NCBI GenBank assembly: GCA_022828595.1
Contig: JAKGHH010000007.1
Coordinates: 37,696,356-37,760,355 of the forward strand
Direction of reading: 5' to 3'
DNA from: Nelumbo lutea
Taxonomy: Eukaryota > Streptophyta > Magnoliopsida > Proteales > Nelumbonaceae
Length of the DNA stretch: 64,000 bases
Each line of letters starts with the position of its first letter. The stretch's first letter is position 1. Both the position numbers and the translations under genes were made by a program. The notes under the pieces are model-generated. The model worked only from the letters and a program-made list of their open reading frames with translations, was not told where the DNA came from and ran no database searches. Shown piece after piece: positions 12,030 through 47,167 of this stretch.

Positions 12030-13910
12030 TAGTTGGAGATTTTAACCAGTCTTGCTCACAATCTAGTGCCTCCACAGTCTCTGGAAATAACAAAGTACGA
12101 TACTAATCAACTACTCTACCCCCAGTACTGGATGTTCCCTCTAATGCTACGGTGGATATTGGAATTGCCAAAATATCATGTGCCAATCTAGAGAGTTTTA
12201 GAAATTTGGGACGATCAACTCGTTACAACATCAAAATATCATAAATTTCACCTCTAGAAAATAGTTTTTCTTCAAGATACAAGTTCAACTCTGATTTTTG
12301 AGTCCTTAGATAATATTCTAAATGCTCTTCAGTTAACCACTGATCAAAACCGCTCAAAAAATCTTCAACACCATGAATCTTTACTGGCTGAGATGCAATA
12401 CTAAAGCTAACAGGCGACCTCTCCTTCGTATCGACACCCACATACTCTAAATACAAGTCATTCAACGCCTCTCTAACACTTGTACATGCCTTTCAGCAGT
12501 CTCTCCATAAATGAGATTATAATAATATGTTACAATCTCCATCTTAAACCTATGATCAAATACAATGGCAATCATAAGCACCAAAGAACATTCATTCCAA
12601 TATTTATTAAAATTTTGTTTTATTATATTTGCTATTCAACAAACATACTCATGTTCACTACAAACCCCACTAAAGCAACAAAATCTTGATTGTGCAAATA
12701 TCGAGAAAAAAAACATTTGAGGTTGGGGAAGTAGTAATTGAGAATTTTTTTGTGCAGATGTAAAAAACTTGTAAGAAATCCTGTACCGCTGCCCCCATTT
12801 CCCATTCCTCATCAGATGGTAAGATTTTTATAGTCACGATTGAGCTTAGCTAGTCGACAAAATGCTTCGTTCAACTCTAAAGCTATGACCAACATGTCAT
12901 ATGTGGAGTTCCATCGTGTTAGACATTTAACAATCACCCATCTCTTATGTTGTAGTTTTGCTTGACTTCTTGCATTGTCAAATTTTTGCTTCTTATGGGG
13001 TGTCAGCTTTACATATTTAGCACTTTCTCGAATCTTATGTAATAATGGTGATACTTCTCTCAACCCATCTTGCACAATAAGATTCAAGATGTGAGCAACA
13101 CATCTTACATGAAATAGGTCACAATGTAATGGAAGCAAACCCTTAACACAGAGCAATTCTTGAGCTCCCTAACCATAACATCATTATTAGAGACATTGTA
13201 AACTATTATAGAACATATTTTTTATAATTGTCCCAAGTCAACAACCTCTCCATAACACTTCATATAGGGTGTTTCCATCATGGGATACTCAATTGCCACA
13301 AATGCAATAATTTTCTTCTTCAGCTCCCATCCATCATTTATAAAGTGTGTCCGTTAAACAACAATACCCCAAATTTTGTTCTAAAGTCTATATATCGGTG
13401 GTTAAGATAATCCGACAATCCAAACCATCAAAGTGTTTATATAGCCTCTCCTTTTCATCCAAGTAAATCTTCATAACATCATCTTTATTGTATTTCTAGA
13501 AACAATATAAATGATGGTTGAAGATTATTAACAAATATATGAAAAAACTCTTCTACAACTATACTAGAAGGAAGCTCATGCTTCATTATCATCTTTGCTA
13601 AGTCCATTCGGCTCTTACCTCGGTCAAATTTGAAGTTTCTACAACTTCTTATTCACTAGTATCTTTTTGTTATAATGTAGGACATCTTGGTACATGCCTT
13701 AAAAAGTGGCTTGTTCCTTTAAAACTTCCTACTATATATTGTTTTTTGCAATGTTTACAAATATCTCTGCTCCCCATAATCCAATTTGATTTTCTTAAAA
13801 TGCCCCCATACTTTGGACCTAACCTTCTTTATAGTAGAGCTAAATGCTATAGATGATTCAACCGGGTTTTCAGGCACATTTACATTTTCAGCACTTGGTT
13901 CATCCATCAT
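12030..13910 (-). pseudogene. hAT transposase pseudogene (BED zinc finger / RICESLEEPER type), copy A
   Basis: Reading the minus strand from ATG at 13910 there is an N-terminal region (MDEPSAENVNVPENPVESS) with KVWGHFKKIKLD and a C..C..H-type BED finger around KHCKKQYIGG. Next come the RNase-H-like core with FDGLDCRIILTTDI, the block YVHDGNTLYE/MERLLTWDNY, and RCVAHILNLIVQDGL (about 13075), where CxxH is typical of hAT proteins. CLTRWNSTYDML follows (about 12915). The C-terminal dimerisation region reads PKFLKLSRLAHDILAIPIST then a decayed STGGRVVD (about 12215-12110), followed by ETVEALDCEQDWL (about 12070). Frameshifts and stops occur throughout. It would have catalysed cut-and-paste transposition. 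The same gene appears again at 24281-22643. Confidence 0.88.
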
Positions 13911-13988
13911 TAATGCATCAAGAAAGAAAATAAATCAATTTTCACACTAACACGAAACACAAGAAAGTCTAATGAGATTGTTTACAAA

Positions 13989-14175
13989 CAGGGCTGTCAA
14001 TGGATTGGATATTGGTCCAATTTGATCTACTCCAATATGAGTCCATTACAAATGGACCATGTCAATTAGGTCTGGACTAGTCCAATTCAACATTGTCTTA
14101 TTGGATTGTCTAGCCCATCCAAATTGGTTTTGATTCGGATAGGGTCCAACCAAACCCGGTCCATTGACACCTCCA
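13989..14175. mobile_element. 187-bp hAT MITE with 8-bp target-site duplication
   Basis: Ends CAGGGCTGTCAATGGA and TCCATTGACACCTCCA are inverted repeats of the same type as the ends of the surrounding hAT element. The flanks TTTACAAA (13981-13988) and TTTACAAG (14176-14183) form a 7/8 target-site duplication. The interior has GGTCCAAT subterminal words and no ORF. It is inserted just upstream of the transposase start. Confidence 0.85.
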
Positions 14176-14183
14176 TTTACAAG

Positions 14184-14968
14184 GATACGATTATAAATCC
14201 CTTCACTATTTACAACTTGTGCGTTGAATATGCCTCTTCTAGTGTAAACTTAAAAAGAAAATGCAATTGACTACCAAATTTAAGAATAAGAAAAATGGTT
14301 CAACTATGATACTGGAAAAAACCTGAAACCAAATCACCAATCAACCCAATATCATAAAACTGATATCCAATTAGATGATATTTATCAAAATTCACGGGCG
14401 GGTTTGATTGGTCAAAGCCCTTCCAATATCATGTCTTTCCGATAGCATAGATTTTCCCCAAGGAAAAAAAAAACACTTGAGCCATGATGGCTCAAATAAT
14501 TTTGAAACTGCACAAGAGATTGAATCAGATTTTTAATGATATCTAATATATGAAATAAAATCTGTTCATTTCTTTTTCAATGATATGAACTTGAATCTCT
14601 TAGGAGTCAAGAGCATGCTTTACATTTTGTGTTTGAAAAAAATATGTATGTTTTAGATGTGTTTTCTTTTTAAATATATCCATTAATAAAGTTTCAGTAA
14701 ATTATAGGTTTCTTTCTTTTGTAAAATCTGTTAATTTCAAATTTAATATCATTGGAGCTTAAGTACTCATTGGAAAGAAAAGGCTAAAACGTTTTTTCCC
14801 GCTAATATATAATGAGAGAATAGATGTTTTGTGGACCAAAAACTGTTGTTGGCTAGGTTATTTTCCTATCTTTAAGTAATTATGTTAAAACAATGATGAA
14901 AACAAGAAATCAAGTAAAGCTTAATCTGTTCTATGCTAGGATCTAATGACAGAGGATAAATGAAATAC
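14184..14968 (-). other. Probable intron of the hAT transposase transcript
   Basis: No coding signal. A good minus-strand splice donor (CATTCAG/GTATTTC) lies at about 14969, at the edge of the GC-richer 5' leader. The acceptor would be near the transposase ATG at 13910. Confidence 0.4.
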
Positions 14969-14999
14969 CTGAATGAACAAATCACAGAGGTCAGAGGAG

Positions 15000-15134
15000 A
15001 GGACGAGAGAAAATAAATAGTGATAAATTGCCGGAGAGAGGGAAATACCATCAGAGTTCATTCGAAGCTGACGAGAGAAAATAAATAGTGATAGATCGCC
15101 GGAGAGGGAAATACCATCAGAGTTCATTCGAAGC
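15000..15134 (-). repeat. Two tandem copies of a 66-bp unit in the hAT 5' leader
   Basis: The block beginning GACGAGAGAAAATAAATAGT and ending ATCAGAGTTCATTCGAAGCT occurs twice in direct succession with few differences. It lies in the leader exon between the right hAT end and the splice donor near 14969. The same doublet is in the second copy at about 25379-25510. Confidence 0.85.
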
Positions 15135-15400
15135 TTCAAACGAAATACCGCAGGCAAGACTTTGAGGGCTGAGTGATGAGGCACTGAACCCTAGCCTTCG
15201 AAAGTTTGAGGACTGAGTGAATTGGACCAACGGGTTTGTTCTAACTGATTGGCTTTCTCCACTATCGGTCCATTCTATGAATGGATGATTCATGTTCAGA
15301 CCGGTCCGAGTCCATATCAATTTTAGGACCGTCCAAATCCATCCATAACATTTCCAATTTGGATGGAGTCCAAACCGAAACCAGTCCATTGACACCCCTG

Positions 15401-16165
15401 CAAAGAAATATTCCCAATGCAAGGTTGCAAGGGACTGCGAATGGTGTGAGCATGGCCTTGTGAAGCTTATTCACCTTGAATAGCACGTGAAATAGGGTTG
15501 ATTTCATTTACAGATGTCTTCCAACCAAAATGATAATTTTTTTTATAAACTCACTTTAGATGGACTTGCGAACTGATTACGGAAAAAGCAATGATCAATA
15601 TTTCAAGAAGTGGCAAATGCTCCGTTCAAGATGGTGGGTTCTTCGTAGTCTGATTCTAGCGTATAAAACTACAATGAAATCGTTTCCAATTAGCCTAACA
15701 TCCAAACACCCTAATTAGAAAAAAAAAAAAAGGATTCAAATTCCTTGGTTCAATATTTAAACTATGGACAGTCTTCTAAATAGGACGTTCCTCCATATAT
15801 ACGCCACTAGGACAAGGTCGATGTTCTTATTTCCATAAGGGATCATAGATTAAACAGAGGCCAAATTACATGGGAAGTCGTCAATGCACGCAATTGTAGA
15901 GAACCAGGCGAAATGAAACGGGGAACGGGACGAAGAGCAAACAAAGCAAAACTGTTACCGAAGAGAGAAAAAATAGAAATGAAGAACATCCACAGTACCA
16001 AGGCTCAAGTGAGGAACATATCCGAAACCTGTAAGAACCCACCCAATTTCATCCATTCAATATATGTATAAGAAACCCAGTATGTAAGAAAATAGTAACC
16101 AAATCAAACATGAAATGCATAATTTCAACAGTGCAACAGAAAACTGGGGACAAGCTTCATTTATA
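15401..16165. other. 3' flank of the PTI1-like kinase gene, copy A
   Basis: Between the hAT right end and the kinase stop codon. It contains an A-tract at 15720-15732 and probably the 3' UTR (16000-16165). There is no separate gene. Nearly identical to 25779-26542. Confidence 0.5.
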
Positions 16166-19100
16166 TTAAATCTCAGGAGCTGGTGCAGGCTGCTTCTGCG
16201 TGAGAAGTGGCTGGAGAGCCTTGACAACTATACTCATGTTTGGTCGGAACTCTGACTCATACTGCACACACAATGCGGCCACAGCAGCAAGCTGCATCAT
16301 CAAGAACCACCACCAGGCTTGTTAGCACTTTAGAATTGTGTTTACTTGTATGAGATTACTAAGAGTTTGAGTGCATAATACATCTTAACGTATAATCATA
16401 TATAATTCGATGCTTTAGCCAGCTTCAATCCACAGTTTACACGTGATCTTTACCTCTGCTCCAGGCCCAGCAAAGGGTTACCATTGCCAGCTGGATGAAA
16501 TTAAGCGTCAAACAAATGGGTTTCCTTCTGGATCTTAACATAGGGATTCTATATTGTTAAAACGACTGAATCTACATTAGTGCTCATATTTGAAGGACAT
16601 CAATTTGTGAAATCTCTCTGCCCACCAAAGGTTAACAGGTGTTCCGAAACATAAAATCTATTGGTCAAATCTCACAGTAAAGTGAAACAAATAAGTTTAA
16701 TTCTTAAAACTCAACAGTGTACCAAGTTTTATTTTTGTTTCCCCATGGTCAACCAAATATACAACCATAAGTTGTGTAAACCTCAACTGATCAATTAAAT
16801 ACACAGTTCAAGTGCCAGTTTGCAACACTATCCAATGTAAGGTTGGAGGTGAAGAGATGAATTTTCATTGTTACCCAAGTGTCGGCCATCCAAGTCAGTT
16901 GAGGACCGGACCAACTGCATGAACTAACTAGTTGGTCATGATGTGGTTGCCTAGGAATGACAGCGTCAACTAGGCCAACTAGTCAAATTAAAATTAGTCA
17001 ACCTAGTCAACTACTAAAACAACAAACAACATGTGGTTCCCTATTCTAGGCTCCTAGCTTTATCCAGCTTAACATGTTTATGCTTGCACAAACAACAAAG
17101 ACCATAAATGTTCAATATCATTAGTTTTCTTCATAGTTGTGATCTGTAATTATTTTATAAAGATTGTATCAATATCTTGAACTTTGAAACAGCCTCTCTG
17201 AATGTGCAGGGGTATGGCTGTGTATCTGTCCCTCCCCAGACCCCGCATTGGCAGGAGCCTTGTGCACTGGCTGCCCCTACCAATATCTTAAATTTATAAT
17301 ATATTTTTCTTTCATTGACTAGTCAGTGAAAGCACCAACTAGTCAAGCTATCAAACTAAGATAATGCCAAATAATCCAGTAGTACCTAACCTACTGCAGA
17401 ATAATTGAGTAGTTTGATAAGTTGTTTTAAAAGTCAATGGTGTACCCAATCTACAAAATCATTGCCAACTATATGAGAGAGAGAGAGAGATGACCTTAGC
17501 AACTCCTTTTGTGAGGATATTCACCCTTTAACCTTGGATCCACACATTGTTTAACCTTGTCCTCACTTAGCCTTGGGGTTGCCTGACCCAAAAAAGATAG
17601 TGCTGTCATGGATACCTCAACTTTAAATCACTCCACTTGCACATATTTATTCACGCATGATAATAATAATTTTTTTGACAAATTAGAGGGCTCACCCAAG
17701 TGACAAGAGATTGCTGCCCACGAGGCATTGTAATGATCAACAGGTTTTCTACCTGTGAGAAGTTCTAGAAGGACAACACCAAAACTATATACATCACTCT
17801 TCTGTGTCAACTGACCAGTCATTGCATATCTGCAATAAGAATTAAGGTTTTGCACGTCAATGTCATCAACATAACAGAGATTTTTTTTTCAAAGAAAAGT
17901 AAGTAAATTATATTAAAAATGCAGATTAGAAGTCTCTGATCATAAATTATTTCTAGAGTACAAATAATCATTCAACAGAATAGAAAGTATCATTAGAACA
18001 GCTACCTGCAGGACAGATGCAAGATGAAGTTTCCATAGGCATTAAAAAATATGGCACTTATGATGCATTAAATACTTTAAAATATGTAAATTTGTAATGT
18101 CAACAAAATACCAAATATGACACTTGATAAATGATAATGCATTAACACTTATAGATGACTAGCATTAACACTTAAAATATGTAAAATGGTATGCTTAACT
18201 AATATACTCTAAAAAAACAAAAACCACAGATGCTAGATATTTAATTAAAATTTGGCAAGATATAAGTATTGAGAAAAGACGTTTAGATTTAAAGGTAGAT
18301 ATAGTAGCCTAATGTAAGTATATTGCATAGGATGTCCATATCCATATCTATGTCTGGGATTTTAGAAACTTGAGAATCACATCCCTGTATCCATGCTGTA
18401 TGCCTGTATCTGTCTCCATATCTAGGTATCTAAGGTGATTAGAAAGTCCTCAAGTAATATTACAGAGCATTAGATGTTGAGTGGGTCTTATTGTTGGAGA
18501 TATGATAACCAAATTCTTTATAGGCCTAAAGCATCACTACTGAGGGTAAGAGTGGTAAAATCTCAACTTAGTGAGGCATGTGGATGTATGCATGAAACAC
18601 ATTGATCAATGATGTAATCAAACTACAGACTATAGCTGCTTTTTCATTTCATGAGTCATGATCTGTAGTCCTTAAGACCTAAGAAACTTACAAAAAACTT
18701 ATGGTTATCTTCAATTACTTTGATGTACCAAGGGTTAGGTGATAATTAAGGGTGCAAGACAAGTTGGGTTAGGTCAGTTTGAGGTCCAACCCTAATCCAA
18801 CTAGAGTTGTGGAACCCCCAATCCTAATCAAACTTCAAGTTGGGTACGGGTTGGCTTGACCTCTCTACTTCCTTTGGCCAAATGTTCTTGTTTTCTAGAC
18901 TCAAGGGTTAACATGGTCAGTAAAATGCTGGCCATAAATATGGGATACTGAGGTTGATGGCACCGGTAAATATCCAGTGGCTGCGCCAAATTGATAGTCT
19001 TACCCAATATTCAGAAAACTGGACCAGGCATAGAACTGGAGAAGGGAGAGTTCACGGAACCAGAGGTCAAACCATGATGACATGGCATATATATATGTAT

Positions 19101-20791
19101 ATATATATATATATAACTACGGGTCATATAAATACTATATATAATATATTTTATAACTTCAAATATATTTAAATATGGTAGATAGATGGCAAGTTCCTTA
19201 ATTTTTTAAAGCAAACGACTAGGGTTTTCAAGTCTCTTAATTTACATTTTTCCTTTAAAATGTGGTGGTAATAATAAAGTAATATGTTACAATAAGAGCA
19301 GAGTCATTAATTTAATGCAAGTAAAGAGGTGGGACTAATGGTAATTAAGCAATTTAATTAGAAATTAGCAAAGTCATATGTTCAAATGCTTACTAAACAC
19401 ATTTTAGAATTTCAATTTGTTTAGTGACGCCGGGTGGTTTCACAAAACCGGGACTGGTTCACGGGGACGGTTTTTCGATCTGGGTTAAACTGGGCCCAGT
19501 CCAGACCGCCGGTTTTTTTATCATAGTAGCGAGTTATTGGGGTATGACCGAAACCGACCAAGGTACAGGGTTCACACAATTCAAACCAGTCCAACCAGCT
19601 CAGTCTTGGTTCCGGTGTTTTCTAAACACTGGTCTTTACCTAACCCAAAAGCAAATAGTAAATGACAACCAACCCAACACAACCATGACTCTAAATGAAT
19701 TAGGCAATGAAAAATAGCCTACTTATTCACCTAATTACAGTCAAACACAAAAATGAATTTAATACAAGTCTAAGCAAGTGCATTACTCTCTGGTGCGATT
19801 GATAACCAAAGGTTCCCCAAAACTTCGAGTAGAATGGAGACGAGGCAGCCACTGTCAGGAGCCTGAATTTGAAAAGGTTAAAGTCAGCCGATTTTGGGCC
19901 TTGAAGTCTTCAAATAAGAAGGCAACGTTGCTGATCTGATATCCCGATGTATAATAGACAGGTTGAACTTTCTCATGTAAAATACTCTAGTCCCCTTGCT
20001 GCATCAACAGCAATTCTCACTTCCGCTGCATCCAATCAAGAAACTGGAGCCGCTGGTTGTCCGCACACTGGACGTCCTTTTTCCTACCGTGCAAATTGGC
20101 AAATAAATAAATAAGTAAATAAATAAATAAAAATATAAAATAACCAGAAGTGTCAAAAAAAAAAGAAGATTTGAGGATCTTTAAATTTTTAATTCAATCA
20201 AAGTAGAGATAAACTAGTCCTCAGAATTATACCATGCCAACAAAAAATGTGCATGTAAAAGAGCCCATGGTTGCAAAACTCATATGCTAAAACACGTTCA
20301 TTTCCCTTCCACACAATCAACCAAAGAACTCAACAAGATTTTTCCATGCTTGCAGTCTTGACACCATAAGGAAAAACCTATATTTGGGATGAATAAATTA
20401 GTCAGATAATGCAACTAGAGAAAGACCACAAAGATGGAAACAAATAAATATAAAACAGAACCTGTGCATCAAGAGAGGAGAGATTATACCTTGTTATTCG
20501 TTTAGTATAAATCCCACACACCTGAGTCAGAAACTCAAATCATTGGGTTCAGGCTCAGAAGAAATATTCATAGTTTTCTTATAAATAGCCACGGGCTTGT
20601 CCACTGTTTAAGGTTGCATAATAAACTCTTCCATAAACGAACCGTTCACCAATCAAAAGATTTTGACTCCAAACTTTTCAGTCTTTCCTTTTAGTTCATC
20701 CAAAGACAAAGCAGGCACTTCAATGGGTGGTGGTGTTTTTCTGCACTTCAGTCTTGGCTGGAGCAGATCCTTTTGAGCTTTTTATGGTTCA
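16166..20791 (-). pseudogene. PTI1-like protein kinase, incomplete copy A (exons 2-7 only, frameshifted)
   Basis: The exons correspond one-to-one to the intact copy B gene: 20791-20522, 20377-20233, about 20088-19786, 17829-17696, 17582-17495 and 16291-16166. The first coding exon is missing because the contig ends at the N gap. Exon 17829-17696 is 134 nt against 133 in copy B, and 17582-17495 is 88 against 87. The three upstream exons contain many single-base insertions, often doubling a neighbouring base. These breaks look like consensus errors near a contig end rather than natural decay, since the last exon is identical in length and sequence type to copy B. It is probably not a separate gene. 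Confidence 0.85.
19005..19631. mobile_element. hAT-type non-autonomous element in a PTI1 intron, copy A
   Basis: Same element as 29379-29953. It starts CAATATTCAGAAAACTGGACC and ends in the inverted counterpart CCGGTGTTTTCTAAACACTG. Flanks GTCTTACC (18997-19004) and GTCTTTACC (19632-19640) form the target-site duplication, apart from one inserted T. It contains a short (TA)n run. Confidence 0.75.
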
Positions 20792-22021
20792 CTGAAATGC
20801 CAACAAAAGTATTTAATTCATATAATAATTTAGAATACAAATAATGAGAAACATGATCCTTACGGAATCCTAATGCAAAACATACTGTTTATGAATTAAA
20901 TATCCCATTTTATGCTACCAAGGAAAATTTTGTGAAGTGCAGGTAAAAAAACTCTCAATTTAGAGATGAAAAAAGTCCATTTAACTTTGAATGTAAATTA
21001 GAGGAAAGAATTTTTTTAATCTGGTTCAAGGTCTGCTCAAGTTGCCTAAATCATTGACATAAAAAAATTAAGTAATTCTTGGCATAAAAAAATTATAATA
21101 TTCCCTGCTGGAGTTCCTCCAAAATTTTTTCCAAATAAAATCCCAAGAAAAAAACAAGAGGAGCTTAAAAATAAGCATTAGCAAATCATTCCAAGTTCAA
21201 ACTCAGAAACAAGAGAAAAGGTGGTAATTGATTTAGTACAAGATGAAAGTCAATATGTTACCCTGAGAAAATTGTACAAAACCAGTAACAAAGAAACGGA
21301 ACTTAGTTGATGGTGAAACACAAAACGAACATGAATTAAAATTTCTAATTAACCTCTATTTAACATGACATCGAAATTGGTACTAAACCAAGAATTGGTT
21401 ATCTATAAAACAACGAAATGGCTGACCAACTCGCCCTGGACAAGGTTTGAAAAACAACACTTAAAGCTTAAAATAGATTAGATATTATGGCAAACATCCA
21501 AAAAAGGAAGAAATAAGAACTAAAGCACCCTCATATAAAGATGTGCTGTATATTGACCTCGCAATGCATAGTATGACAAGATACTTGAGGAAGTAAAACA
21601 AAAAATACAAAAATAAAAAATAAATCTCAAGAATCTATATGTGATCACAGATGGTTGCCCCAAGAAAAACATTGCGGTTAAAGCCCCTTTTTAGAAATGC
21701 AAAATTAAACAAAGTAAATAGCAAAGGAGAAAGAATAAACAATATCCAATGAGGCAAATAATAAATTACAACATTAGCAATGGCACACTAGAACTTTTAA
21801 GACATGGAAAACTTCTCCCAATGTGAAGAGGAAAAACCCCAGAGGACTAACCCAAAAAACTTTGCACTATCAACAAGAATAATAGATTACAACTTCTCTA
21901 GTTTCAACTAAGAAGTAATAGCAACCTCAAGAGACATAAAACCTCTCTTGGATACACAAAAACAGTCATCAAACAAAATGCATTTCAATCAACAAAAACA
22001 TTATAAAGACCTCACCAAACA
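20792..22021. other. Intron sequence upstream of PTI1 exon 2, copy A
   Basis: Matches 31002-32168 of the second copy but is interrupted by many single-base insertions. No gene. Confidence 0.6.
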
Positions 22022-22461
22022 AATAAGAGTGTCAATTGGACTTGGATTTGGTCCAAATCCAATCCAGTCCAATGTGAGTCCATTAATAAAATGGACCAGG
22101 TCCAGTCCAATCCAATGAATGTTTTTGACCATTTTGGACCGGTCCAATTCAATGTTTGGACTGTCCAAATCTGTTCAAATTCATTTCGATTTAGATTGGT
22201 TTCAACCCAAACCTGATCCATTGACTCATAATAATTCTTATCTTTAATATCAATGGACTCAGATATTGGCTTAAATCCAACCCAAATCCAATATAAATTT
22301 TGTTATGGACGGACCATGGAGTCCCATCCAATCTAATAAATATTTTGGACCAGATTGGTCCCAACCTCTAATATGTTCTTGGTTGGTCCGTCCAATCTGT
22401 CCAAATTGATTTTGGACCAGACGGGGTCCCAATCCAAAATCCGGTTCCATTGAACACCCTT
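22022..22461. mobile_element. hAT MITE, copy A
   Basis: Counterpart of 32169-32583. It has GTGTCAATTGGA and TCCATTGAACACCCTT ends, GGTCCAAT-type words inside, and flanks ACCAAACA (22014-22021) and AACAAACA (22462-22469). Confidence 0.75.
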
Positions 22462-22542
22462 AACAAACAAGGCTGCCAATAGCCCTCTCCAAAAGAGGAT
22501 ACCAACATGTGTCAAAAATGCCACGATCCTCCACTAAAAGAA

Positions 22543-22642
22543 NNNNNNNNNNNNNNNNNNNNNNNNNNNNNNNNNNNNNNNNNNNNNNNNNNNNNNNNNN
22601 NNNNNNNNNNNNNNNNNNNNNNNNNNNNNNNNNNNNNNNNNN
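22543..22642. other. Assembly gap of exactly 100 N
   Basis: A run of 100 N, the conventional size for a gap of unknown length. The sequence to its left stops at a point equivalent to about 32662, and the sequence to its right starts at a point equivalent to about 12291. Confidence 1.
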
Positions 22643-24281
22643 TCTGATTTTTGAGTCACTAGAACAAATATTCCAGAACGCTCTTTTTAGTTATCCAAGT
22701 CAAACACCAATCAAAACCATTAAAAAAATCTACAACACGACGAATCCTCAATGGCTGAGATGCAATACTAGAGTCTGCAAGTGACCTATCTTTTATATCA
22801 AAACCCACATACTCTGAATATAGGTCATTTAGTGCCTCTCTAATTCTTGATAACATGCCTTTCAGTAGTCTCTCCATAAATGAGATTGTAGTAATATGTA
22901 ATAATCTTAATCTTAAACCGGGGATCAAGGACAATGTCAATCGCAAGTATCAAAGAACATTCATCCCAATATTTATCAAAATTTTGCTTCAATCTATTTG
23001 CCATTGAATAAATATACTCATATTCACTATGTAGCCACTAAAACAACAAAAGTTTGATTGTGCAAATATCGAGAAAAAAAATACATTTGAGGTTGGGGAA
23101 GTAGTACTTGAGAAATTTTTTGTGTAGATATAAAAAACTTGTAAGAAATCCTGTACCGCTGCCCCATTTCCCATTCCTCATCAGATGGTAGATTTTTATA
23201 GTCACGATTGAGCTTAGCTAGTCGACAAAATGCTTCATTCAACTCTAAAGCTATGACCAACATGTTCATATGTAGAGTTCCATCGTGTTGGACAATTAAC
23301 AATCACTCCTCTCTTATGTTGTATTTTTTCTTGACTTCTTGCATTGTCAAATTTTTGCTTCTTATGGGGTGTCAGCTTTACATATTTAGCACTTTCTCGA
23401 ATCTTATGTAATAATGGTGATACTTCTCTCAACCCATCTTGCACAATAAGATTCAAGATGTGAGAACACATCTTACATGAAATAGGTCACAATGTAATGG
23501 AAGCAAACCCTTAACACAGAGCCGATTCTTGAGCTCCCTAACCATAACATCATTATTAGAGACATTGTAAACTATTATAGAACATATTTTTTATAATTGT
23601 CCCAAGTCAACAACCTCTCCATAACTTCATATAGGGTGTTTCCATCATGGGGATACTCAATTGCCACAAATGCATTAATTTTCTTCTTCAGCTCCCATCC
23701 ATCATTTATAAAGTGTGTCGTTAAACAACAATACCCCAAATTTTGTTCTAAAGTCTATATATCGGTGGTTAAGATAATCCGACAATCCAAACCATCAAAG
23801 TGTTTATATAGCCTCTCCTTTTCATCCAAGTAAATCTTCATAACATCATCCTTTATTGTATTTCTAGAAACAAATATAAATGATGATTGAAAATTATTGA
23901 CAAATATCTGAAAACTCTTCTTCAACTATATTAAAAGGATGTCCATGCTTCATTATCATCTTTGCTAAGTCCATTTGGCTCTTATCTTGGTCAAATTTGA
24001 AGTCTTCTACAACTTCTTTGTTCACTTGTGTCATTTTGTTTTAATTTAGGACATTTTGATACATGCCCTAAAAGGTGGATTGTTCCTTTAGAACATCCTC
24101 CTATATACTGTTTTTTGCAATGTTTTACAAAATATCTCTGCTCCCCATAATCCAATTTGATTTTCTTAAAATGCCCCCATACTTTGGACCTAACCTTCTT
24201 TATAGTAGAGCTAAATGCTATAGATGATTCAACCGGGTTTTCAGGCACATTTACATTTTCAGCACTTGGTTCATCCATCAT
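22643..24281 (-). pseudogene. hAT transposase pseudogene, copy B (C-terminus cut by the gap)
   Basis: The minus-strand ATG at 24281 starts MMDEPSAENV and the BED-finger region. The block HILNLIVQDGLREVSPLLHK is at about 23460-23400, CPTRWNST at about 23290, and ALNDLYSEYVG near 22830. The dimerisation region is lost because the contig begins at 22643. Frameshifts (for example at about 23290) and stops break it. See 12030-13910 for domain details. Confidence 0.85.
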
Positions 24282-24359
24282 TAATGCATCAAGAAAGAAA
24301 ATAAATCAATTTTCACACTAACACGAAACACAAGAAAGTCTAATGAGATTGTTTACAAA

Positions 24360-24546
24360 CAGGGCTGTCAATGGATTGGATATTGGTCCAATTTGATCTA
24401 CTCCAATATGAGTCCATTACAAATGGACCATGTCAATTAGGTCTGGACTAGTCCAATTCAACATTGTCTTATTGGATTGTCTAGCCCATCCAAATTGGTT
24501 TTGATTCGGATAGGGTCCAACCAAACCCGGTCCATTGACACCTCCA
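24360..24546. mobile_element. 187-bp hAT MITE, copy B
   Basis: Same as 13989-14175, with flanking TTTACAAA (24352-24359) and TTTACAAG (24547-24554). Confidence 0.85.
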
Positions 24547-25378
24547 TTTACAAGGATACGATTATAAATCCCTTCACTATTTACAACTTGTGCGTTGAAT
24601 ATGCCTCTTCTAGTGTAAACTTAAAAAGAAAAATGCAATTGACTACCAAATTTAAGAATAAGAAAAATGGTTCAACTATGATACTGGAAAAAACCTGAAA
24701 CCAAATCACCAATCAACCAATATCATAAAACTGATATCCAATTAGATGATATTTATCAAAATTCACGGGCGGGTTTGATTGGTCAAAGCCCTTCCAATAT
24801 CATGTCTTTCCGATAGCATAGATTTTCCCCAAGGAAAAAAAAAACACTTGAGCCATGATGGCTCAAATAATTTTGAAACTGCACAAGAGATTGAATCAGA
24901 TTTTTAATGATATCTAATATATGAAATAAAATCTGTTCAATTTCTTTTTCAATGATATGAACTTGAATCTCTTAGGAGTCAAAGAGCATGCTTTACATTT
25001 TGTGTTTGAAAAAAATATGTATGTTTTAGATGTGTTTTCTTTTTAAATATATCCATTAATAAAGTTTCAGTAAATTATAGGTTTCTTTCTTTTGTAAAAT
25101 CTGTTAATTTCAAATTTAAATATCATTGGAGCTTAAGTACTCATTGGGAAAGAAAAGGCTAAAACGTTTTTTTCCCGCTAATATATAATGAGAGAAATAG
25201 ATGTTTTGTGGACCAAAAACTGTTGTTGGCTAGGTTATTTTCCTATCTTTAAGTAATTATGTTAAAACAATGATGAAAACAAGAAATCAAGTAAAGCTTA
25301 ATCTGTTCTATGCTAGGATCTAATGACAGAGGATAAATGAAATACCTGAATGAACAAATCACAGAGGTCAGAGGAGAG

Positions 25379-25778
25379 GACGAGAGAAAATAAATAGTGA
25401 TAAATTGCCGGAGAGAGGGAAATACCATCAGAGTTCATTCGAAGCTGACGAGAGAAAATAAATAGTGATAGATCGCCGGAGAGGGAAATACCATCAGAGT
25501 TCATTCGAAGCTTCAAACGAAATACCGCAGGCAAGACTTTGAGGGCTGAGTGATGGAGGCACTGAACCCTAGCCTTCGAAAGTTTGAGGACTGAGTGAAT
25601 GGACCAACGGGTTTGTTCTAACTGATTGGCTTTCTCCACTATCGGTCCATTCTATGAATGGATGATTCATGTTCAGACCGGTCCGAGTCCATATCAATTT
25701 TAGGACCGTCCAAATCCATCCATAACATTTCCAATTTGGATGGAGTCCAAAACCGAAACCAGTCCATTGACACCCCTG
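25379..25778 (-). mobile_element. Right end of the hAT element, copy B, with 66-bp doublet
   Basis: Contains the duplicated 66-bp leader unit (25379-25510), the GGTCCAAT-type subterminal cluster (25590-25760) and the terminus CCATTGACACCCCTG at 25764-25778. Same arrangement as 15000-15400. Confidence 0.65.
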
Positions 25779-26542
25779 CAAAGAAATATTCCCAATGCAA
25801 GGTTGCAAGGGACTGCGAATGGTGTGAGCATGGCCTTGTGAAGCTTATTCACCTTGAATAGCACGTGAAATAGGGTTGATTTCATTTTACAGATGTCTTC
25901 CAACCAAAATGATAATTTTTTTATAAACTCACTTTAGATGGACTTGCGAACTGATTACGGAAAAAAGCAATGATCAATATTTCAAGAAGTGGCAAATGCT
26001 CCGTTCAGATGGTGGGTTCTTCGTAGTCTGATTCTAGCGTATAAAACTACAATGAAATCGTTTCCAATTAGCCTAACATCCAAACACCCTAATTTAGAAA
26101 AAAAAAAGGATTCAAATTCCTTGGTTCAATATTTAAACTATGGACAGTCTTCTAAATAGGACGTTCCTCCATATATACGCCACTAGGACAAGGTCGATGT
26201 TCTTATTTCCATAAGGGATCATAGATTAAACAGAGGCCAAATTACATGGGAAGTCGTCAATGCACGCAATTGTAGAGAACCAGGCGAAATGAAACGGGGA
26301 ACGAGACGAAGAGCAAACAAAGCAAACTGTTACCGAAGAGAGATAAAAAATAGAAATGAAGAACATCCACAGTACCAAGTCTCAAGTGAGGAACATATCC
26401 GAAACCTGTAAGAACCCACCCAATTTCATCCATTCAATATATGTATAAGAAACCCAGTATGTAAGAAAATAGTAACCAAATCAAACATGAAATGCATAAT
26501 TTCAACAGTGCAACAGAAAACTGGGGACAAGCTTCATTTATA

Positions 26543-29458
26543 TTAAATCTCAGGAGCTGGTGCAGGCTGCTTCTGCGTGAGAAGTGGCTGGAGAGCCTTG
26601 ACAACTATACTCATGTTTGGTCGGAACTCTGACTCATACTGCACACACAATGCGGCCACAGCAGCAAGCTGCATCATCAAGAACACCACCAGGCTTGTTA
26701 GCACTTTAGAATTGTGTTTACTTGTATGAGATTACTAAGAGTTTGAGTGCATAATACATCTTAACGTATAATCATATATAATTCGATGCTTTAGCCAGCT
26801 TCAATCCACAGTTTACACGTGATCTTTACCTCTGCTCCAGGCCCAGCAAAGGGTTACCATTGCCAGCTGGATGAAATTAAGCGTCAAACAAATGGGTTTC
26901 CTTCTGGATCTTAACATAGGGATTCTATATTGTTAAAACGACTGAATCTACATTAGTGCTCATATTTGAAGGACATCAATTTGTGAAATCTCTCTGCCCA
27001 CCAAAGGTTAACAGGTGTCCGAAACATAAAATCTATTGGTCAAATCCACAGTAAAAGTGAACAAATAAGTTTATTCTTAAACTCAACAGTGTACAAGTTT
27101 TATTTTTGTTTCCCCATGGTCAACCAAAATATACAACCTTAAGTGTGTAAACCTCAACTGATCAACCAAATACACAGTTCAAGTGCCAGTTTGCAACACT
27201 GTATCCAATGTAAGGTTGGAGGTGAAGAGAGATGAATTTTCATTGTTACCCAAGTGTCGGCCATCCAAGTCAGTTGAGGACCGGACCAACTGCATGACTA
27301 ACTAGTTGGTCATGATGTGGTTGCCTAGGATGACAGCGTCAACTAGGCCAACTAGTCAAATTAACAATTAGTCAACCTAGTCAACTACTAAAACAACAAA
27401 CAACATGTGGTTCCATATTCTAGGCTCCTAGCTTATCCAGCTTAACATGTTTATGCTTGCACAAACAACAAAGACCATAAATGTTCAATATCATTAGTTT
27501 TCTTCATAGTTGTGATCTGTATTAAGATTGTATCAATATCTTGAACTTTGAAACAGCCTCTCTGAATGTGCAGGGGTATGGCTGTGTATCTGTCCCTGTC
27601 CCTCCCCAGACCCCGCATTGGCAGGAGCCTTGTGCACTGGCTGCCCCTACCAATATATTAAATTTATAATATATTTTTCATTCATTGACTAGTCAGTGAA
27701 AGCACCAACTAGTCAAGCTATCAAACTAGATAATGCCAAATAATCCAGTAGTACCTAACCTACTGCAGAATAATTGAGTAGTTTTTGATAAGTTGTTTTT
27801 AAAGTCAATGGTGTACCCAATCTACAAAATCATTGCCAACTATATGAGAGAGAGAGAGAGATGACCTTAGCAACTCCTTTTGGAGGATATTCACCCTTTA
27901 ACCTTGGATCCACACATTGTTTAACCTTGTCCTCACTTAGCCTTGGGGTTGCCTGACCCAAAAAAGATGGTGCTGTCATGGATACCTCAACTTTAAATCA
28001 CTCCACTTGCACATATTTATTCACGCATGCTAATAATAATTTTTTGACAAATTAGAGGGGCTCACCCAAGTGACAAGAGATTGCTGCCCACGAGGCATTG
28101 TATGATCAACAGGTTTTCTACCTGTGAGAAGTTCTAGAAGGACAACACCAAAACTATATACATCACTCTTCTGTGTCAACTGACCAGTCATTGCATATCT
28201 GCAATAAGAATTAAGGTTTTGCACGTCATGTCATCAACATAACAGAGATTTTTTTTTCAAAGAAACGTAAGTAAATTATATTAAAAATGCAGATTAGAAG
28301 TCTCTGATCATAAATTATTTCTAGAGTACAAATAATCATTCAACAGAATAGAAAGTATCATTAGAACAGCTACCTGCAGGACAGATGCAAGATGAAGTTT
28401 CCATAGGCATTAAAAAATATGGCACTTGATGATGCATTAATACTTTTAAAATATGTAAATTGGTAATGTCAACAAAATACCAAATACGACACTTGATAAA
28501 TGATAATGCATTAACACTTATAGATGACTAGCATTAACACTTAAAATATGTAAAATGGTATGCTTAACTAATATACTCTAAAAAAACAAAACCACAGATG
28601 TTAGATATTTAATTAAATTTGGCAAGATATAAGTATTGAGAAAAGACGTTTAGATTTAAAGGTAGATATAGTAGCCTAATGTAAGTATATTGCATAGGAT
28701 GTCCATATCCATATCTATGTCTGGGATTTTAGAAACTTGAGAATCACATCCCTGTTTCTCGTATCCATGCTGTATGCCTGTATCTGTCTCCATATCTAGG
28801 TATCTAAGGTGATTAGAAAGTCCTCAAGTAATATTACAGAGCATTAGATGTTGAGTGGGTCTTATTGTTGGAGATATGATAACCAAATTCTTTATAGGCC
28901 TAAAGCATCACTACTGAGGCTAAGAGTGGTAAAATCTCAACTTAGTGAGGCATGTGGATGTATGCATGAAACACATTGATCAATGATGTAATCAAACTAC
29001 AGACTATAGCTGCTTTTTCATTTCAGTGAGTCATGATCTGTAGTCCTTAAGACCTAAGAAACTTACAAAAACTTATGGTTATCTTCAATTACTTTGATGT
29101 ACCAAGGGTTAGGTGATAATTAAGGGTGCAAGACAGGTTGGGTTAGGTCAGTTTGAGGTCAACCCTAATCCAACTAGAGTTGTGGAACCCCAATCCTAAT
29201 CAAACTTCAAGTTGGGTACGGGTTGGCTTGACCTCTCTACTTCCTCTGGCCAAATGTTGTTGTTTTCTAGACTCAAGGGTTAACATGGTCAGTAAAATGC
29301 TGGCCACTAAATATGGGATACTGAGGTTGATGGCACCAGGTAAATATCCAGTGGCTGCGCCAAATTGATAGTCTTACACAATATTCAGAAAACTGGACCA
29401 GGCATAGAACTGGAGAAGGGAGAGGATCATGGAACCAGAGGTCAAACCATGATGACAT

Positions 29459-29495
<37 letters not shown>

Positions 29496-32400
29496 TACGG
29501 GTCATATAAATAATATATATAATATATTTTATAACTTCAAATATATTTAAATATGGTAGATAGATGGCAAGTTCCTTAATTTTTAAAGCAAACGACTAGG
29601 GTTCAAGTCTCTTAATTTACATTTTCTTTAAATGTGTGTATAATAAAGTAATATGTACAATAAAGAGTCATTAATTAATGCAAGTAAAGAGGTGGACTAA
29701 TGGTAATTAAGAAATTTATAGAAATTAGAAGTCATATGTTCAAATCTTACTAAACACATTTTAGAATTTCAATTGTTTAGGACCCGGGTGGTTTCATAAA
29801 ACCGGGACCAGTTCACTGGTTTTCTGGTTAAACTGGCCAGTCAGCCGGTTTTTTATCAAGTACAGTTATTGGGGTATGACCGAACCGACCAAGGTACAGG
29901 GTCACAATTCAACCAGTCCAACCAGCCAGTCTGGTCCGGTTTTCTAAACACTGGTCTTACCTAACCCAAAAGCAAATATAAATGAAAAACCACACAACCA
30001 TGACCTCTAATGAATTAGGCAATGAAAATAGCCTACTTATTCACCTAATTACAGTCAAACACAAAATGAATTTATACAAGTCTAAGCAGCATTACTCTGG
30101 TGCATGATAACCAAAGGTCCCCAAAACTCGAGTAGAATGGAGACGAGCAGCCATGTCAGGAGCCTGATTTGAAAGGTTAAAGTCAGCAATTTTGGCCTTG
30201 AAGTCTTCAAATAGAAGCACGTTGCTTGATCTGATATCCCGATGTATAATAGAAGGTTGAACTTTCTCATGTAAATACTCTAGTCCCCTTGCTGCATCAA
30301 CAGCAATTCTCACTCGCTGCATCCAATCAAGCACAGGACCTGGTTGTGCACCTTGGACTCCTTTTCTACCTGGAATTGCAAATAAATAAATAATAAAATA
30401 TAAATAACCAGAAGTGTCAAAAAAAAGAAGATTGAGGATCTTTAAATTGTTAATTCAATCAAGTAGAGCTAAACTAGTCCTCAGAATATACCATGCAAAA
30501 TGTCATGTAAAGAGCCCATGGTCGCAAACTCATATGCTAAAACACGTTCATTCCCTTCCACACAATAACCAAGCAACTCAACAAGATTTTCATGCTTCAG
30601 TCTTGACACCATAGAAACCTATATTTGGGATGATAAATAGTCAGATATGACAGGAGAAAGACAAAAGATGGAAACAAATAAATATAAAATAGAACCTGTG
30701 CATCAGAGAGAGAGATTATATGTATTGTTTAGTATAAATCCACACACCTGAGTCAGAAACTCATCATTGGGTTCAGGCTCAGAAGAAATATCAAGTTTCT
30801 TTATAGCCACGGCTTGTCCACTGTTTAAGGTTGCATAATAAACTCTTCCATACGAACCTTCACCAATCAAAGATTTTGATCCAAAATTTTCAGTCTTTTC
30901 TTTTAGTTCGTCCAAAGACAAAGCAGGCACTTCAATGGGTGGTGGTGTTTTCTGCACTTCAGTCTTGGCTGGAGCAGATGCCTTTGAGCTTTTATGGTTC
31001 ACTGAAATGCAACAAAAGTATTTATTTCATATAATAAATAGAATACAAATATAAAACATGATCTTATGGATCCTAATGCAAACATACTGTTATGAAATAA
31101 ATATCCCATTTATGCTACCAGGAAAATTTTGTGAAGTTCAGGCAAAAAAACTCAATTTAGAGATGAAAAAAGTCCATTTAACTTTGAATGTAAATTAAGA
31201 AAGAATTTTTATCTGTTCAAGGTCTGCTCAATTGCTAAATCATTGACATAAAAATTAAGTAATTCTTGGCATAAAAATTATATAATCCTGCTAGAGTTCC
31301 TCAAAATCTTCAAATAAAATCCCAAGAAAAAAACAAGAGAGCTTAAAATAAGCATTAGCAAATCATTCCAAGTTCAAACTCAGAACAAGAGAAAGGTGGT
31401 AATTGATTTAGTACAGATGAAAGTCATATGTTACCCTGAGAAAATTGTACAAAACCAGTAACAAAGAAAAGGAACTTAGTTGATGGTGAAACACAACGAA
31501 CATGAATAAAATTCTAATAACCTCTATTTACATGACATAGAAATTGGTACTAAACCAAGAATTGGTTATCTAAAAAACAAGAATGGCTGACCAACTCGCC
31601 CTGGACAAGGTTGAAAAACAACACTTGAAGCTTAAAACAGAATAGATATATGGCAAACATCCAAAAAAGGAAGAAATAAGAACTAAAGCACCCTCATATA
31701 AAGATGTGCTGTATATTGACCTCGCAATGCATAGTATGACAAGATACTTGAGGAAGTAACAAAAAATAAAAAATAAAAAATAAATCTCAAGAATCTATAT
31801 GTATCACAGATGGTTGCCCCAAGAAAACATTGCGGTTAAAGCCCCTTTTTAAATGCAAATAAACAAAGTAAATAGCAAAGGAGAAAGAATAAACAATATC
31901 CAATGAGGCAAATAATCAAATACAACATTAGCAATGGCACACTAGAACTTTTAACATGGAAAGCTTCTCCAATGTGAAGAGGAAAAACCCCAGAGCACTA
32001 ACCCAAAAAACTTGCACTATCAACAAGAATAATAGATTGCAACTTCTCTAGTTTCAACTAGAGTATAGCAACCTCAAGAGACAAAAAACCTCTCTTGGAT
32101 ACACAAAAACAGTCATCAAACAAAATGCATTTCAATCAACAAAAACATTAGAAAGACCTCACCAAACAATAAGTGTCAATTGCACTGGATTTGGTCCAAT
32201 CCAATCCAGTCCAACGTGAGTCCATTATAAATGGACTAGGTCCAATCCAATCCAATGAGTGTTTTGGACTAATTTGGACCGGTCCAATTCAATGTTTGGA
32301 CCGTCAATCTGTTTAAATTCATTTTGATTTAGATTGATTTCAACCCAAACTCGATCTATTGACACATATATTCTTATCTTATACCAATGGACCAGATATT

Positions 32401-35400
32401 GGCTTAATCCAACTTAATACAATATACATTTGTTATGGACAGACCAAGTCCAATCCAATCTAATAAATATTTTGGACCGGTTGGTCCAATCTAATGTCTT
32501 GTTGGTCCATCCAATTCATCCAAATTGATTTTTTTAACTGGACCAGACATGATCCAATCCAAAACCAGTCCATTGACACCCTTACCAAACAAGGCTGCCA
32601 AAGCCCTCTCCAAAGAGGATACCAACATGTGTCAAAAATGCCACGATTCTCCACTAAAAGAAATAGTGGAGAGCAGGTCCCACAATCCACTAACATGGTA
32701 CTAAGACAAGACAATTTGTCTCTTTCTCACCAATGAGAGAATACAAAGAGCCTCAAACTTTATTTTGTCTTTCTATTTAACTTTCTCAAGTCACTCATGT
32801 ATAGGGCAAGAGATCCCAACACACGAGTGGGTCCCATCACATGAGAGAAAACCCAATAGAAAAAACTCAAAAAGCTTCCTTTAATATGGGAACATGAACT
32901 CAGTGGAGTCAGTTATAGCGATCCCCGTCACTGTAAATATAACATAGGAGGATCTTTTATCCATGCTAAATCCAAAATGATCAAGAGTTCTATTAAATTC
33001 AATTATTCATTTCCATTTTTCTGCTATGGAAGGTTCTCAGTGAAGTCTTTTATATGGTATTGATTACAGATAACATGGCTTTAGATCAAGTAGAAGGTAT
33101 GTGGGCGAATCCAGTGCCTCCAAGAGTGGAAGCATTCGCATGATTGGTTGCTCTTGATAGCATTTTAACTACTGATCATCTGAAGAGCAAAGGTTTTAGC
33201 TTGGCAAGTTACTGTTATTTGTATAACTCGCATAAGGAATCTGTTTGCTATCTTGCAAGGTGGAAAACTTCATATCGAAGTTCTATTCATTCACATTTTG
33301 AGAGTCTTTCAGCCATCATAATCAGCAGAAATTTTCTGTGGCCAATACTTGGAGAAAACAAGAAAGTTAGAATTATCTGGAGACTGGAGCTCAATCTTTT
33401 AGGGTATGTTGGACATTATGGAATGAGAGGAATAGAAGACTGTTATAGAACAAATCGAAGAACATTGAAAGTGATTGTAGCTTCAGTAGGTAAGCTTGTA
33501 CAATACTGAGTTTTGGTTCTCCCAGAATTTGAGCTAGTTAACAGATCTGATTTGTTGGAAAGATTTTGGAATGTCCTTGAACTGCAACCTTGTAATGTTG
33601 ATCTTTTTCATTGTGATTAGTTATTTTGGTGTGTCATCTTGACAACCATTCATTGTGATTAGTTACTCTTTCTTCTTAAAAAAAAAAAAAAAACTTTCTT
33701 ACACTTATGCAGGGGATGAAACTCAAGAGAAATTATGGAGAAAATGAGGAGATGAGCCTACAGTTTTTAGGGCCCACAGATCTAATAGTCCTAAAGTGAA
33801 GTCCATTAGGATGTGCCCAAGATTCCTAAGTATTGATACAATGTTCCCCATATTGGGCATTTTGTATCGTTCCGGCAGGTCACCAAAATGCTAATTCTAA
33901 GGACTTTTAGAATTTTGGTTATTTTAAATGCTAAATAACAGTATTATAGCCCCCTTGTAAAAATATTAAACTAAAAGACTTTAAAATTTTTGATATAAGA
34001 CTTACCCAAAAAAACCCGATACACATGATCATGCATATTAGGTGTATTGATACTTTGAACCTTGGAATGTGTCAAGTGATTGTAGAGAAAGTTTAAATCC
34101 TCTAGAAATTTACTATCTTTTAGTAAAAGCAAACTCATTATAACTTCTGAACTTATTATTTATTGCAGTTCCTATAATTGCTATTCATAGTGAAATTGTG
34201 GTTTATTGTTGTTAGTAATTGTTGGTTTCTTCAATTATGTTAGTAGGTGGTTCTTACTTGTTCTAAAGACAGAGTTTGAGTGAAAATAGAAATTATTGGG
34301 TGTAAGTACCTTTTCTTGATTATTAGTCTGTGGGTTTATTAAAGGGAAATTCTAGGCCTGGTAAGGAATCACCTAAGAGATAGATTGAGCTTTGAAACAA
34401 AACTGAAGTGTTTTGATGCGTGGTACTTAGAGGGACGACTTCTCCCACCGGGTCTGTTTTCCTATGCCTCTTTTTTCAAATTTTTCAGTGTCTTCTAATA
34501 GTTTGGGAATGAGGTTCCTGGTGAAAGATAAAAGATAGTAGACACACATATAATGGCTTAAGAACGAAGCGCTAGACAAAAGTAGATAGCAAAGCCAATA
34601 TTAAGGAACGAATTTGATACCTCACAAGAATATCAGTAATATAAACTGGTGATCTAGCAAAATCAGGCAGGATCTATAACAGAGGATCCCAGCGTCCTGC
34701 AGAATAAAGTCTCACACATAAAAGAGTGAGGCCGCTTTGCAAAGCTAAGCGGCTTGACAATTGAACTTCATGAGACTATGAAGTGATCTCACAAGGCGGA
34801 ATCTTGTAGGCGTGGACACAAACCCGCTAGGTCAAGTGAGACCTGGTTCGCAAGGCCTGATCTCGTGGATCAAGAGTTTCACGATCTCATTGGAGAACAA
34901 GATCCTTAAATCACTAATGACCCTTGAATCAATGAGGTATATTTTCTAAACTTCTTTTTGCTTTTAACCAATGTTTTAGAACGTGGAGGCATGACTCGAG
35001 GCGTTCCACTACAAGCGTAGTTCAGAACATAAGAGGTGCCTCAAGAGGATGATGAGAAGGAAGGAGGAAGAGGAAGGAGGAGTATCTCATTTTTCTTAAT
35101 AAAAATCTTTTATACTAAGAAAAATGAAAATGAATAGCACTAGTTGAAGGGGGGTCTTGTCAAAGCAGAGGCAAGCAAGCAAGCTGAAGTGGAGCAAGAC
35201 CCCAAGCTGGAGGGAACAAGACCCCCCACACCCCCCCCACCTAACACAAAAAGTTAAAAAAAAGGCTGGCATTGAAAAGGGGCCAAGGGGTCTGGCCGTC
35301 TGGGGGGCTTCCTTTACCCTCATCTTTTCTTCCCTTCCCTTTCCTTTCCTTTCCTTTCTTTTTCTCTTTTTTTCTCTTCTCTTTCTTTCATTTTCTTCCC

Positions 35401-36138: not shown

Positions 36139-36210
36139 TGTGAGATCAATGTTTTGCTTGCTAAGCTGACTCTTGAGGCATTCAAAGAAATTAAGAGAAG
36201 GAGCATGTGC
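36139..36210 (-). other. 5' UTR part of the first coding exon of PTI1
   Basis: A splice acceptor on the minus strand (TTAGTGCAG/GCACATG) fits at 36211/36210, placing 72 nt of leader before the ATG at 36138. A second candidate acceptor (GAGTCAG) lies closer to the ATG. Confidence 0.5.
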
Positions 36211-36513
36211 CTGCACTAACAAAGCCAAGTCCATGATGTAACTCATAACAGTACGTCAGACATTAATTGTGCAGAAGATATTTTTTCTTTTTTGAACTTC
36301 AGTTGATAATTAACAACTTATTAAATAGAGATTTTGATCATTGATACTAATATGCTTTGAATAACTGACAGAACACTAGAATTGGTGAACTCAGACTATG
36401 GAGATTATTCCAACCCAGGGCTTCTGTTAAAAGGACTAAGTTATGCACCTCCGGAAAACCTAAACCTATCCAACCCAGGAAGGCATCTGAATCCCACTTC
36501 TTGTGACAATTGT

Positions 36514-46257: not shown

Positions 46258-47167
46258 GAATTAGTTAGAAAGGAACCCGAGAATTATTAACTGGGTCGAA
46301 TATTTTAACAGTTAAACCACTTGGGTCAATGGTTTTTTGACCATTTCAAAGGTCTTTTGTAAAATAGCGGTTCAGGGCCAAAACAAAATTAGTGACTTGA
46401 CTGGTTCCCAAGACAAATGGTTTGACCGTTCAGTTTGGTTTGATTTTTAAAATAGTGATTAAAATACTCATTTTTTAATTTATTCCCTATTTAATTGTAA
46501 GGTTTAAATTGTAAATTGAACTACTACTTTTCATCTCATCTAATTACCTCTATTTAAATCTTACATTTTTTATAAATGAACAAAAGAAAAAAGATAAAAC
46601 ACTACAAAAAATAAGCGTATAGCCAAGCATGTAGGACTGCTAATGATACTTAAAACTTCATAATTTGATATCAAATTTGGATTTTGCAATAAAACAAAAA
46701 ATAAAATACATAAAGTTTATAGAACAATTTGGATATATTATTACTATAATTATCATCATCTAGAATTGTCACGTGCAAAATATGTGCACACTCACTAGTG
46801 TGATTAACAAGACTTGAACCCATGAAATCTTATTTGTATTTATTGCTTAATTACCACTAATCCACCTCTTTACTTATGTTAATGAATGACTTCTTATTGT
46901 ACAAATTACTTTATTATGCATGTATTTTAAAGAAAATGTAAATTACAAGACTTGAACCCTAGTCATTTGCTTTTTGTCTTCCATCCACAATATTTAAATA
47001 TTTTAAAAGTTGTAAAATATATTAAATATAGCATTTATATGACCTATTGTATATATGTATATGCCATGCCATCATGATTTGAACTCTAATTTGACCCTAG
47101 TTAAACCTCTAACCTGTGAGCCTCTCCCTTCTCCAATTCTATGCCTGATACAGTTCTCTAAGCATTG
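46258..47167. mobile_element. Diverged, inverted copy of the PTI1-intron hAT element
   Basis: Between about 46780 and 47160 the sequence is the reverse complement of 29379-29760 (TA-rich centre, CCACCTCTTTACTT, CTCTCCCTTCTCCA, ATGCCTGATACAGTT). The right end AGAGAACTG/AGCATTG complement agrees with the CAATATTCAGAAAACTGG terminus. The left end is approximate. It has diverged much more than the two intron copies have from each other. Confidence 0.6.

What the first reader, a model, noticed from the sequence alone, without database searches (positions are those of the whole stretch)
12291..32662. Apparent 10-kb tandem duplication is probably an unmerged contig overlap
The block left of the 100-N gap ends at sequence equivalent to about 32662, and the block right of the gap starts at sequence equivalent to about 12291. 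The right copy simply reads on where the left one stops. A real duplication would rarely have its end coincide exactly with a gap. The left copy also accumulates about 250 extra single bases towards its end, as a poor-quality contig end would. The consequence is that a second, broken PTI1 kinase and a second hAT would be annotated where only one exists, or where two haplotypes were stacked.
Basis: partly seen in the sequence, partly recalled or inferred. Interest (0 to 1): 0.8.

Follow-up and report, generated by a model that had tools for sequence, protein, structure and literature searches.

The report
Unmerged contig overlap, false gene duplication
A 10-kb stretch of a plant genome (probably lotus) appears twice across an assembly gap, almost certainly because two overlapping pieces of the same place were never merged, so the broken second copy of a kinase gene is most likely not real.

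Summary
Window 12290-22542 (copy A, 10,253 bases) matches 22643-32662 (copy B, 10,020 bases), up to the last base before the only 100-N gap and from the first base after it. Better evidence is the pattern of differences. The core (13774-16659) has 2 substitutions in 2,876 aligned bases; divergence is high only towards each contig's own end. In A's last 3.3 kb, 190 indel events add bases to A and 3 to B. PTI1 kinase exons 2-7 are open in B, while exons 2-4 carry 16, 18 and 27 extra bases in A; exon 1 exists once, beyond the overlap. A third copy of one repeat sides with B at 22 of 23 extra A bases. Within B's first 1.5 kb lie patches resembling another hAT transposon copy. Best reading: a homotype false duplication at a contig boundary, with a noisy tail on the left contig and repeat-mixed sequence at the start of the right one. 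Stacked haplotypes are the main rival. No reads and no sister assembly could be examined, so this is inference from sequence.

The parts
12290..22542 (+). Copy A: the end of the left contig
   Evidence: Aligned to copy B end to end
22543..22642 (.). 100-N gap between the two contigs
   Evidence: The only run of N in the window
22643..32662 (+). Copy B: the start of the right contig
   Evidence: Aligned to copy A end to end
13774..16659 (.). Near-identical core of copy A
   Evidence: 2 substitutions in 2,876 aligned bases; indel events 8 extra in A, 13 extra in B
19200..22542 (.). Noisy tail of the left contig
   Evidence: 190 indel events add 267 bases to A, 3 events add 9 bases to B; 80 substitutions in 3,076
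22643..23057 (-). Patch of a different hAT copy at the very start of the right contig (C-terminal part of the transposase); equivalent to A 12290-12690
   Evidence: 71 substitutions in 399 aligned bases, 49 transitions to 22 transversions; closer to Nelumbo protein P0121 than A is
23846..24144 (-). Second hAT patch in the right contig (N-terminal part); equivalent to A 13479-13773
   Evidence: 28 substitutions in 293; B matches P0121 62 of 62 residues, A 41 of 59
36031..36249 (-). PTI1-like kinase exon 1, present once, beyond the overlap
   Evidence: tblastn with P0001
26546..30990 (-). PTI1-like kinase exons 2-7 in copy B, each open
16169..20780 (-). The same exons in copy A: exons 2-4 carry 16, 18 and 27 extra bases, exons 5 and 6 one each, exon 7 identical
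46799..47062 (-). Third, inverted copy of a repeat that also lies in A (19101-19353) and B (29482-29758); used to tell which copy changed
   Evidence: three-way alignments

Best explanation
A false duplication of the homotype, contig-boundary kind. One locus of a Nelumbo-like plant was assembled into two contigs that overlap by about 10 kb. The left contig ends in a stretch built from few, insertion-prone long reads; the right contig begins in a hAT transposon where sequence of another hAT copy is mixed in. The two ends were therefore too unlike to be merged, and a scaffolder set them side by side with a default 100-N gap. Shown: geometry, pattern of differences, gene structure, resemblance of the patches to another hAT copy. 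Inferred: long-read origin of the noise, the failed merge, the scaffolding step. Confidence that it is a false duplication of either kind: 0.93; the figure below is for the homotype kind.
For: Homology ends exactly at both contig ends. Substitutions fall to 0.07% in the core and are high only towards each contig's own end. The tail's indels go one way, 190 events to 3, against 30 to 29 in 13774-19199. Kinase exons are open in B and broken in A only where A nears its contig end. The third repeat copy lacks 22 of the 23 bases that A has beyond B. hAT C-terminus lies only in the left contig and PTI1 exon 1 only in the right, so the two contigs read as one continuous locus. A 66-bp tandem repeat has 2.0 copies in both. 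Published description of tandem copies with a gap, about one corrected read long (PMC8081667, passages). If this is China Antique lotus, heterozygosity of 0.03% (PMC9266308, passages) speaks against haplotypes.
Against: 16660-19199 has 0.88% substitutions and indels of 6 and 7 bases that look like allelic differences. The hAT patches have a transition excess (49:22 and 18:10), unlike sequencing error, so a second cause is needed there. Insertions are densest at the onset of the tail, not at the contig end. Almost no bases are missing in the tail, stricter than plain raw long reads would give (my expectation). No read depth or read path was seen.
Confidence: 0.62

Rival explanations
1. Heterotype false duplication: the two copies are the two haplotypes of one locus, kept as separate contig ends and stacked in one scaffold, with a noisy left tail on top.
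For: 0.88% substitutions and 6- and 7-base indels in 16660-19199; substitutions differ strongly between 13774-16659 and 16660-19199 (2 vs 22, Fisher p about 5e-6), as haplotype blocks might. In published vertebrate assemblies heterotype was the main source of false duplications (PMC9516828, passages).
Against: Transitions do not exceed transversions in 16660-19199 (9:13), as errors would have it, though 22 sites are few. The core is 0.07% different. 17.8% in a hAT patch is far beyond allelic difference. Lotus heterozygosity in print is low: 0.03% for China Antique, 0.439% for the most heterozygous cultivar group (PMC9325450, passages); but that the window is lotus rests on the hAT matches alone.
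Confidence: 0.31
2. A real tandem duplication with a unit longer than 10.25 kb, in which the assembly broke and the junction was lost in the gap.
For: The geometry allows it, because contig ends would cut the homology on both sides. Assemblies often break inside young duplications (general knowledge).
Against: Divergence follows the contig ends instead of being even. 190 insertions to 3 in one direction is not how DNA mutates. Only one 10-kb-scale repeat and no junction lie in the window. hAT C-terminus and PTI1 exon 1 each occur once and complete a single locus.
Confidence: 0.06

Closest known systems
Homotype false duplication, overlapping sequences at contig boundaries (VGP, PMC8081667, Extended Data Fig. 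5b legend; passages)
   Same: Same locus twice at adjoining contig ends, in tandem with a gap between, about a long read in size
   Different: Here one end also carries patches resembling another transposon copy; read depth and k-mers were not seen
Heterotype false duplication / heterozygous overlap (PMC9516828 and PMC7203741; passages)
   Same: Contig ends overlapping across a scaffold gap, gene pieces falsely doubled
   Different: Needs two divergent haplotypes; the core here is 0.07% different and the large differences are error-like or transposon patches
Negative gaps (PBJelly paper, PMC3504050; passages)
   Same: Neighbouring contigs in a scaffold that should overlap but were not joined
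   Different: The six Sanger-checked cases shown there involve 1 to 43 bases; this one about 10 kb

Membership tests
False duplication (hallmarks of PMC9516828) | Gap between the two copies on one scaffold | tested here: met
   100-N gap at 22543-22642, with both copies abutting it
False duplication (hallmarks of PMC9516828) | Half depth (heterotype) or very low depth (homotype) | not testable with these tools
   No reads held
False duplication (hallmarks of PMC9516828) | Discordant or spanning read pairs | not testable with these tools
   No reads held
Homotype duplication (PMC8081667) | Overlap at contig boundaries, same locus | tested here: met
   Homology ends at the contig ends to the base; core 2 substitutions in 2,876. 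That it is one locus is inferred
Homotype duplication (PMC8081667) | Size about that of a corrected read | tested here: inconclusive
   About 10 kb is plausible, but the read set is unknown
Homotype duplication (PMC8081667) | Differing consensus quality between the copies | tested here: met
   190 insertion events in A's tail against 3 in B; exons open in B, broken in A
Heterotype duplication (PMC8081667, PMC9516828) | Haplotype-specific variants at half coverage in both copies | not testable with these tools
   No reads held; 22 substitutions in 2,511 at 16660-19199 could be such variants
Real tandem duplication | A junction from the end of one unit to the start of the next | tested here: inconclusive
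   None in the window, but it could lie in the gap
Real tandem duplication | Divergence independent of contig ends, indels in both directions | tested here: not met
   Divergence is high only towards the contig ends; tail indels 190 to 3

The most novel reading that the evidence does not exclude
A real, very young tandem duplication of a PTI1 kinase locus with its hAT neighbour, in which the hAT copies were patched by gene conversion from a related element and one kinase copy is decaying.
Probability: 0.04. Interest if true: 0.3.

Novelty: not a real feature. Interest (0 to 1): 0.1.

Why it matters
Its weight is practical. Left in, the annotation would gain a false, broken PTI1-like kinase and a second hAT, and counts of tandem duplicates would rise. 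The window also shows how such a case can be recognised without reads: divergence high only towards each contig's own end, one-directional insertions, and single-copy exons on the far side of the overlap.

Tried and rejected
Rejected: 'the ends coincide with the gap, therefore artefact' as sufficient by itself (homology must stop at contig ends in either case).

Rejected: B as the faulty copy in the tail. Open exons and the third repeat copy side with B.

The first alignment (MAFFT) gave 200 substitutions in the tail against 80 with an affine aligner, because MAFFT avoids gaps; I use.

Sixty of the 120 listed hAT proteins compared with both copies gave mixed votes: C-terminal patch B better 50, A better 9, tie 1; middle A 38, B 22; N-terminal patch A 38, B 19, ties 3. 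Distant relatives therefore do not decide; I rely on the one close Nelumbo protein, P0121. Codon positions in the C-terminal patch show little third-position excess (20 of 48 changes; 10 synonymous and 26 non-synonymous codons), so they do not show selection.

A search for an annotated protein carrying A's frameshifted exon 5 showed no Nelumbo name among the 120 listed of 1,864; it does not show that none exists. Pfam on the 9 ORFs of 120 aa or more gave hits for 2.

Full report
What is there. The window has one run of N, 22543-22642, exactly 100 bases, and one long direct repeat across it. A global alignment extends the repeat to 12290-22542 (A) against 22643-32662 (B): it starts at the first base of the right contig and ends at the last base of the left contig. 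Totals: 9,937 aligned bases, 217 substitutions, 316 bases only in A, 83 only in B.

How far the geometry goes. Both ends of the repeat are contig ends. That is how an overlap looks, but a real tandem unit longer than 10.25 kb with the break inside would look the same. The coincidence is supportive and not decisive. No duplication junction lies in the window.

The pattern of differences. By stretch of A: 12290-12690, 71 substitutions in 399 (17.8%; 49 transitions, 22 transversions); 12691-13478, 14 in 782; 13479-13773, 28 in 293 (18:10); 13774-16659, 2 in 2,876; 16660-19199, 22 in 2,511 (9:13); 19200-22542, 80 in 3,076 (45:35). Indel events adding bases to A and to B: 8 and 13 in 13774-16659, 22 and 16 in 16660-19199, 190 and 3 in the tail. 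So divergence is patchy at the right contig's start, almost absent in the core and high again at the left contig's end. A single duplication event gives no reason for that. The extra bases begin abruptly at about 19202, at 62 per 500 bases, and fall to about 20 per 500, so they do not simply build up. Of 143 single-base insertions in the tail, 107 repeat a neighbour, against 58% for an average base there; in 12700-19199 it is 28 of 31 against 50%. This resembles long-read error, described as skewed to insertions in PMC3504050 (passages). That almost no bases are missing is stricter than I would expect of plain raw reads and suggests a thin consensus (inference). The last 640 bases show 5.9% substitutions with a transition excess (24:12); by eye this is a GGACC-rich repeat, not tested further.

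Which copy is wrong where. A PTI1-like kinase lies on the minus strand (best listed hits 92-93% identical, Tetracentron, Magnolia, Telopea and Malania). Exon 1 is at 36249-36031, outside the overlap and found once; exons 2-7 are open in B. In A, exons 2, 3 and 4 carry 16, 18 and 27 extra bases, exons 5 and 6 one each, and exon 7 is identical. A third, inverted copy of a repeat at 46799-47062 lacks 22 of the 23 bases that A has beyond B in that stretch; no base is found in B alone, three are shared by B and the third copy only (they lie at the edge where I cut A), and substitutions side with B 8 to 2. So the tail's errors are in A.

The start of the right contig. Here the differences lie in a hAT transposase. 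The Nelumbo nucifera protein P0121 matches B in the two N-terminal pieces 62 of 62 residues and A 41 of 59; in the longer C-terminal piece B 45 of 48 and A 37 of 51; in the shorter one B 24 of 42, across a gap, and A 13 of 18 in the part that aligned. In the central piece it is the other way: A 91 of 91, B 60 of 65. P0121 differs from both at its N-terminus (40 of 48) (all). P0121 is thus a separate hAT copy, and both A and B look like mosaics of family members in parts. Mixing of reads from repeat copies during assembly is the simplest cause; gene conversion is possible. Distant hAT relatives gave no clear vote. The hAT frame is interrupted in both copies, at places that partly differ.

Organism. 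The hAT matches make lotus (Nelumbo) likely. Against this, I saw no Nelumbo name among the 120 listed of 1,894 PTI1 matches or the 120 listed of 1,864; the database is clustered at 90% identity, so members may be hidden. The assembly cannot be told. Lotus assemblies in print include China Antique from 11.9 Gb PacBio plus short reads, contig N50 484.3 kb, with heterozygosity of 0.03% (PMC9266308, passages), and American lotus from PacBio RSII reads with Canu, Pilon, purge_haplotigs and ALLHiC (PMC9325450, passages).

Known kind. [quoted passage not shown] PMC9516828 lists a gap between copies and lowered read depth as hallmarks (passages). PMC7203741 says that, to its authors' knowledge, long-range scaffolders do not handle heterozygous overlaps (passages).

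Verdict. A false duplication with about 0.93 confidence: homotype 0.62, stacked haplotypes 0.31. A real duplication 0.06. The second PTI1 and second hAT should not be annotated as extra genes until reads say otherwise. Reads or another assembly would settle it; the genome could not be reached here.

Noticed in passing
window 36031-36249 (-): In PTI1 exon 1 the position of the usual start methionine of PTI1 relatives reads valine (VRRWLCC against MRRWLCC); an in-frame ATG lies four codons upstream.
   Followed up: partly
window 8910-9519 and 54890-55155: Tandem repeats with periods of 169 and 36 bases, 3.6 and 7.5 copies, outside the overlap.
   Followed up: no
window 15002-15135 and 25379-25512: A 66-bp tandem repeat has 2.0 copies with the same score in both copies of the overlap.
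   Followed up: partly
window 38302-38688 (+): ORF with a zf-RVT domain (PF13966, E 5.5e-9), probably a retrotransposon remnant.
   Followed up: no
window 22017-22420 (A) and 32164-32540 (B): GGACC-rich sequence just before the left contig's end, with raised substitutions between the copies; similar-looking stretches near 10.0-10.2 kb and 14.1 kb, by eye only.
   Followed up: no
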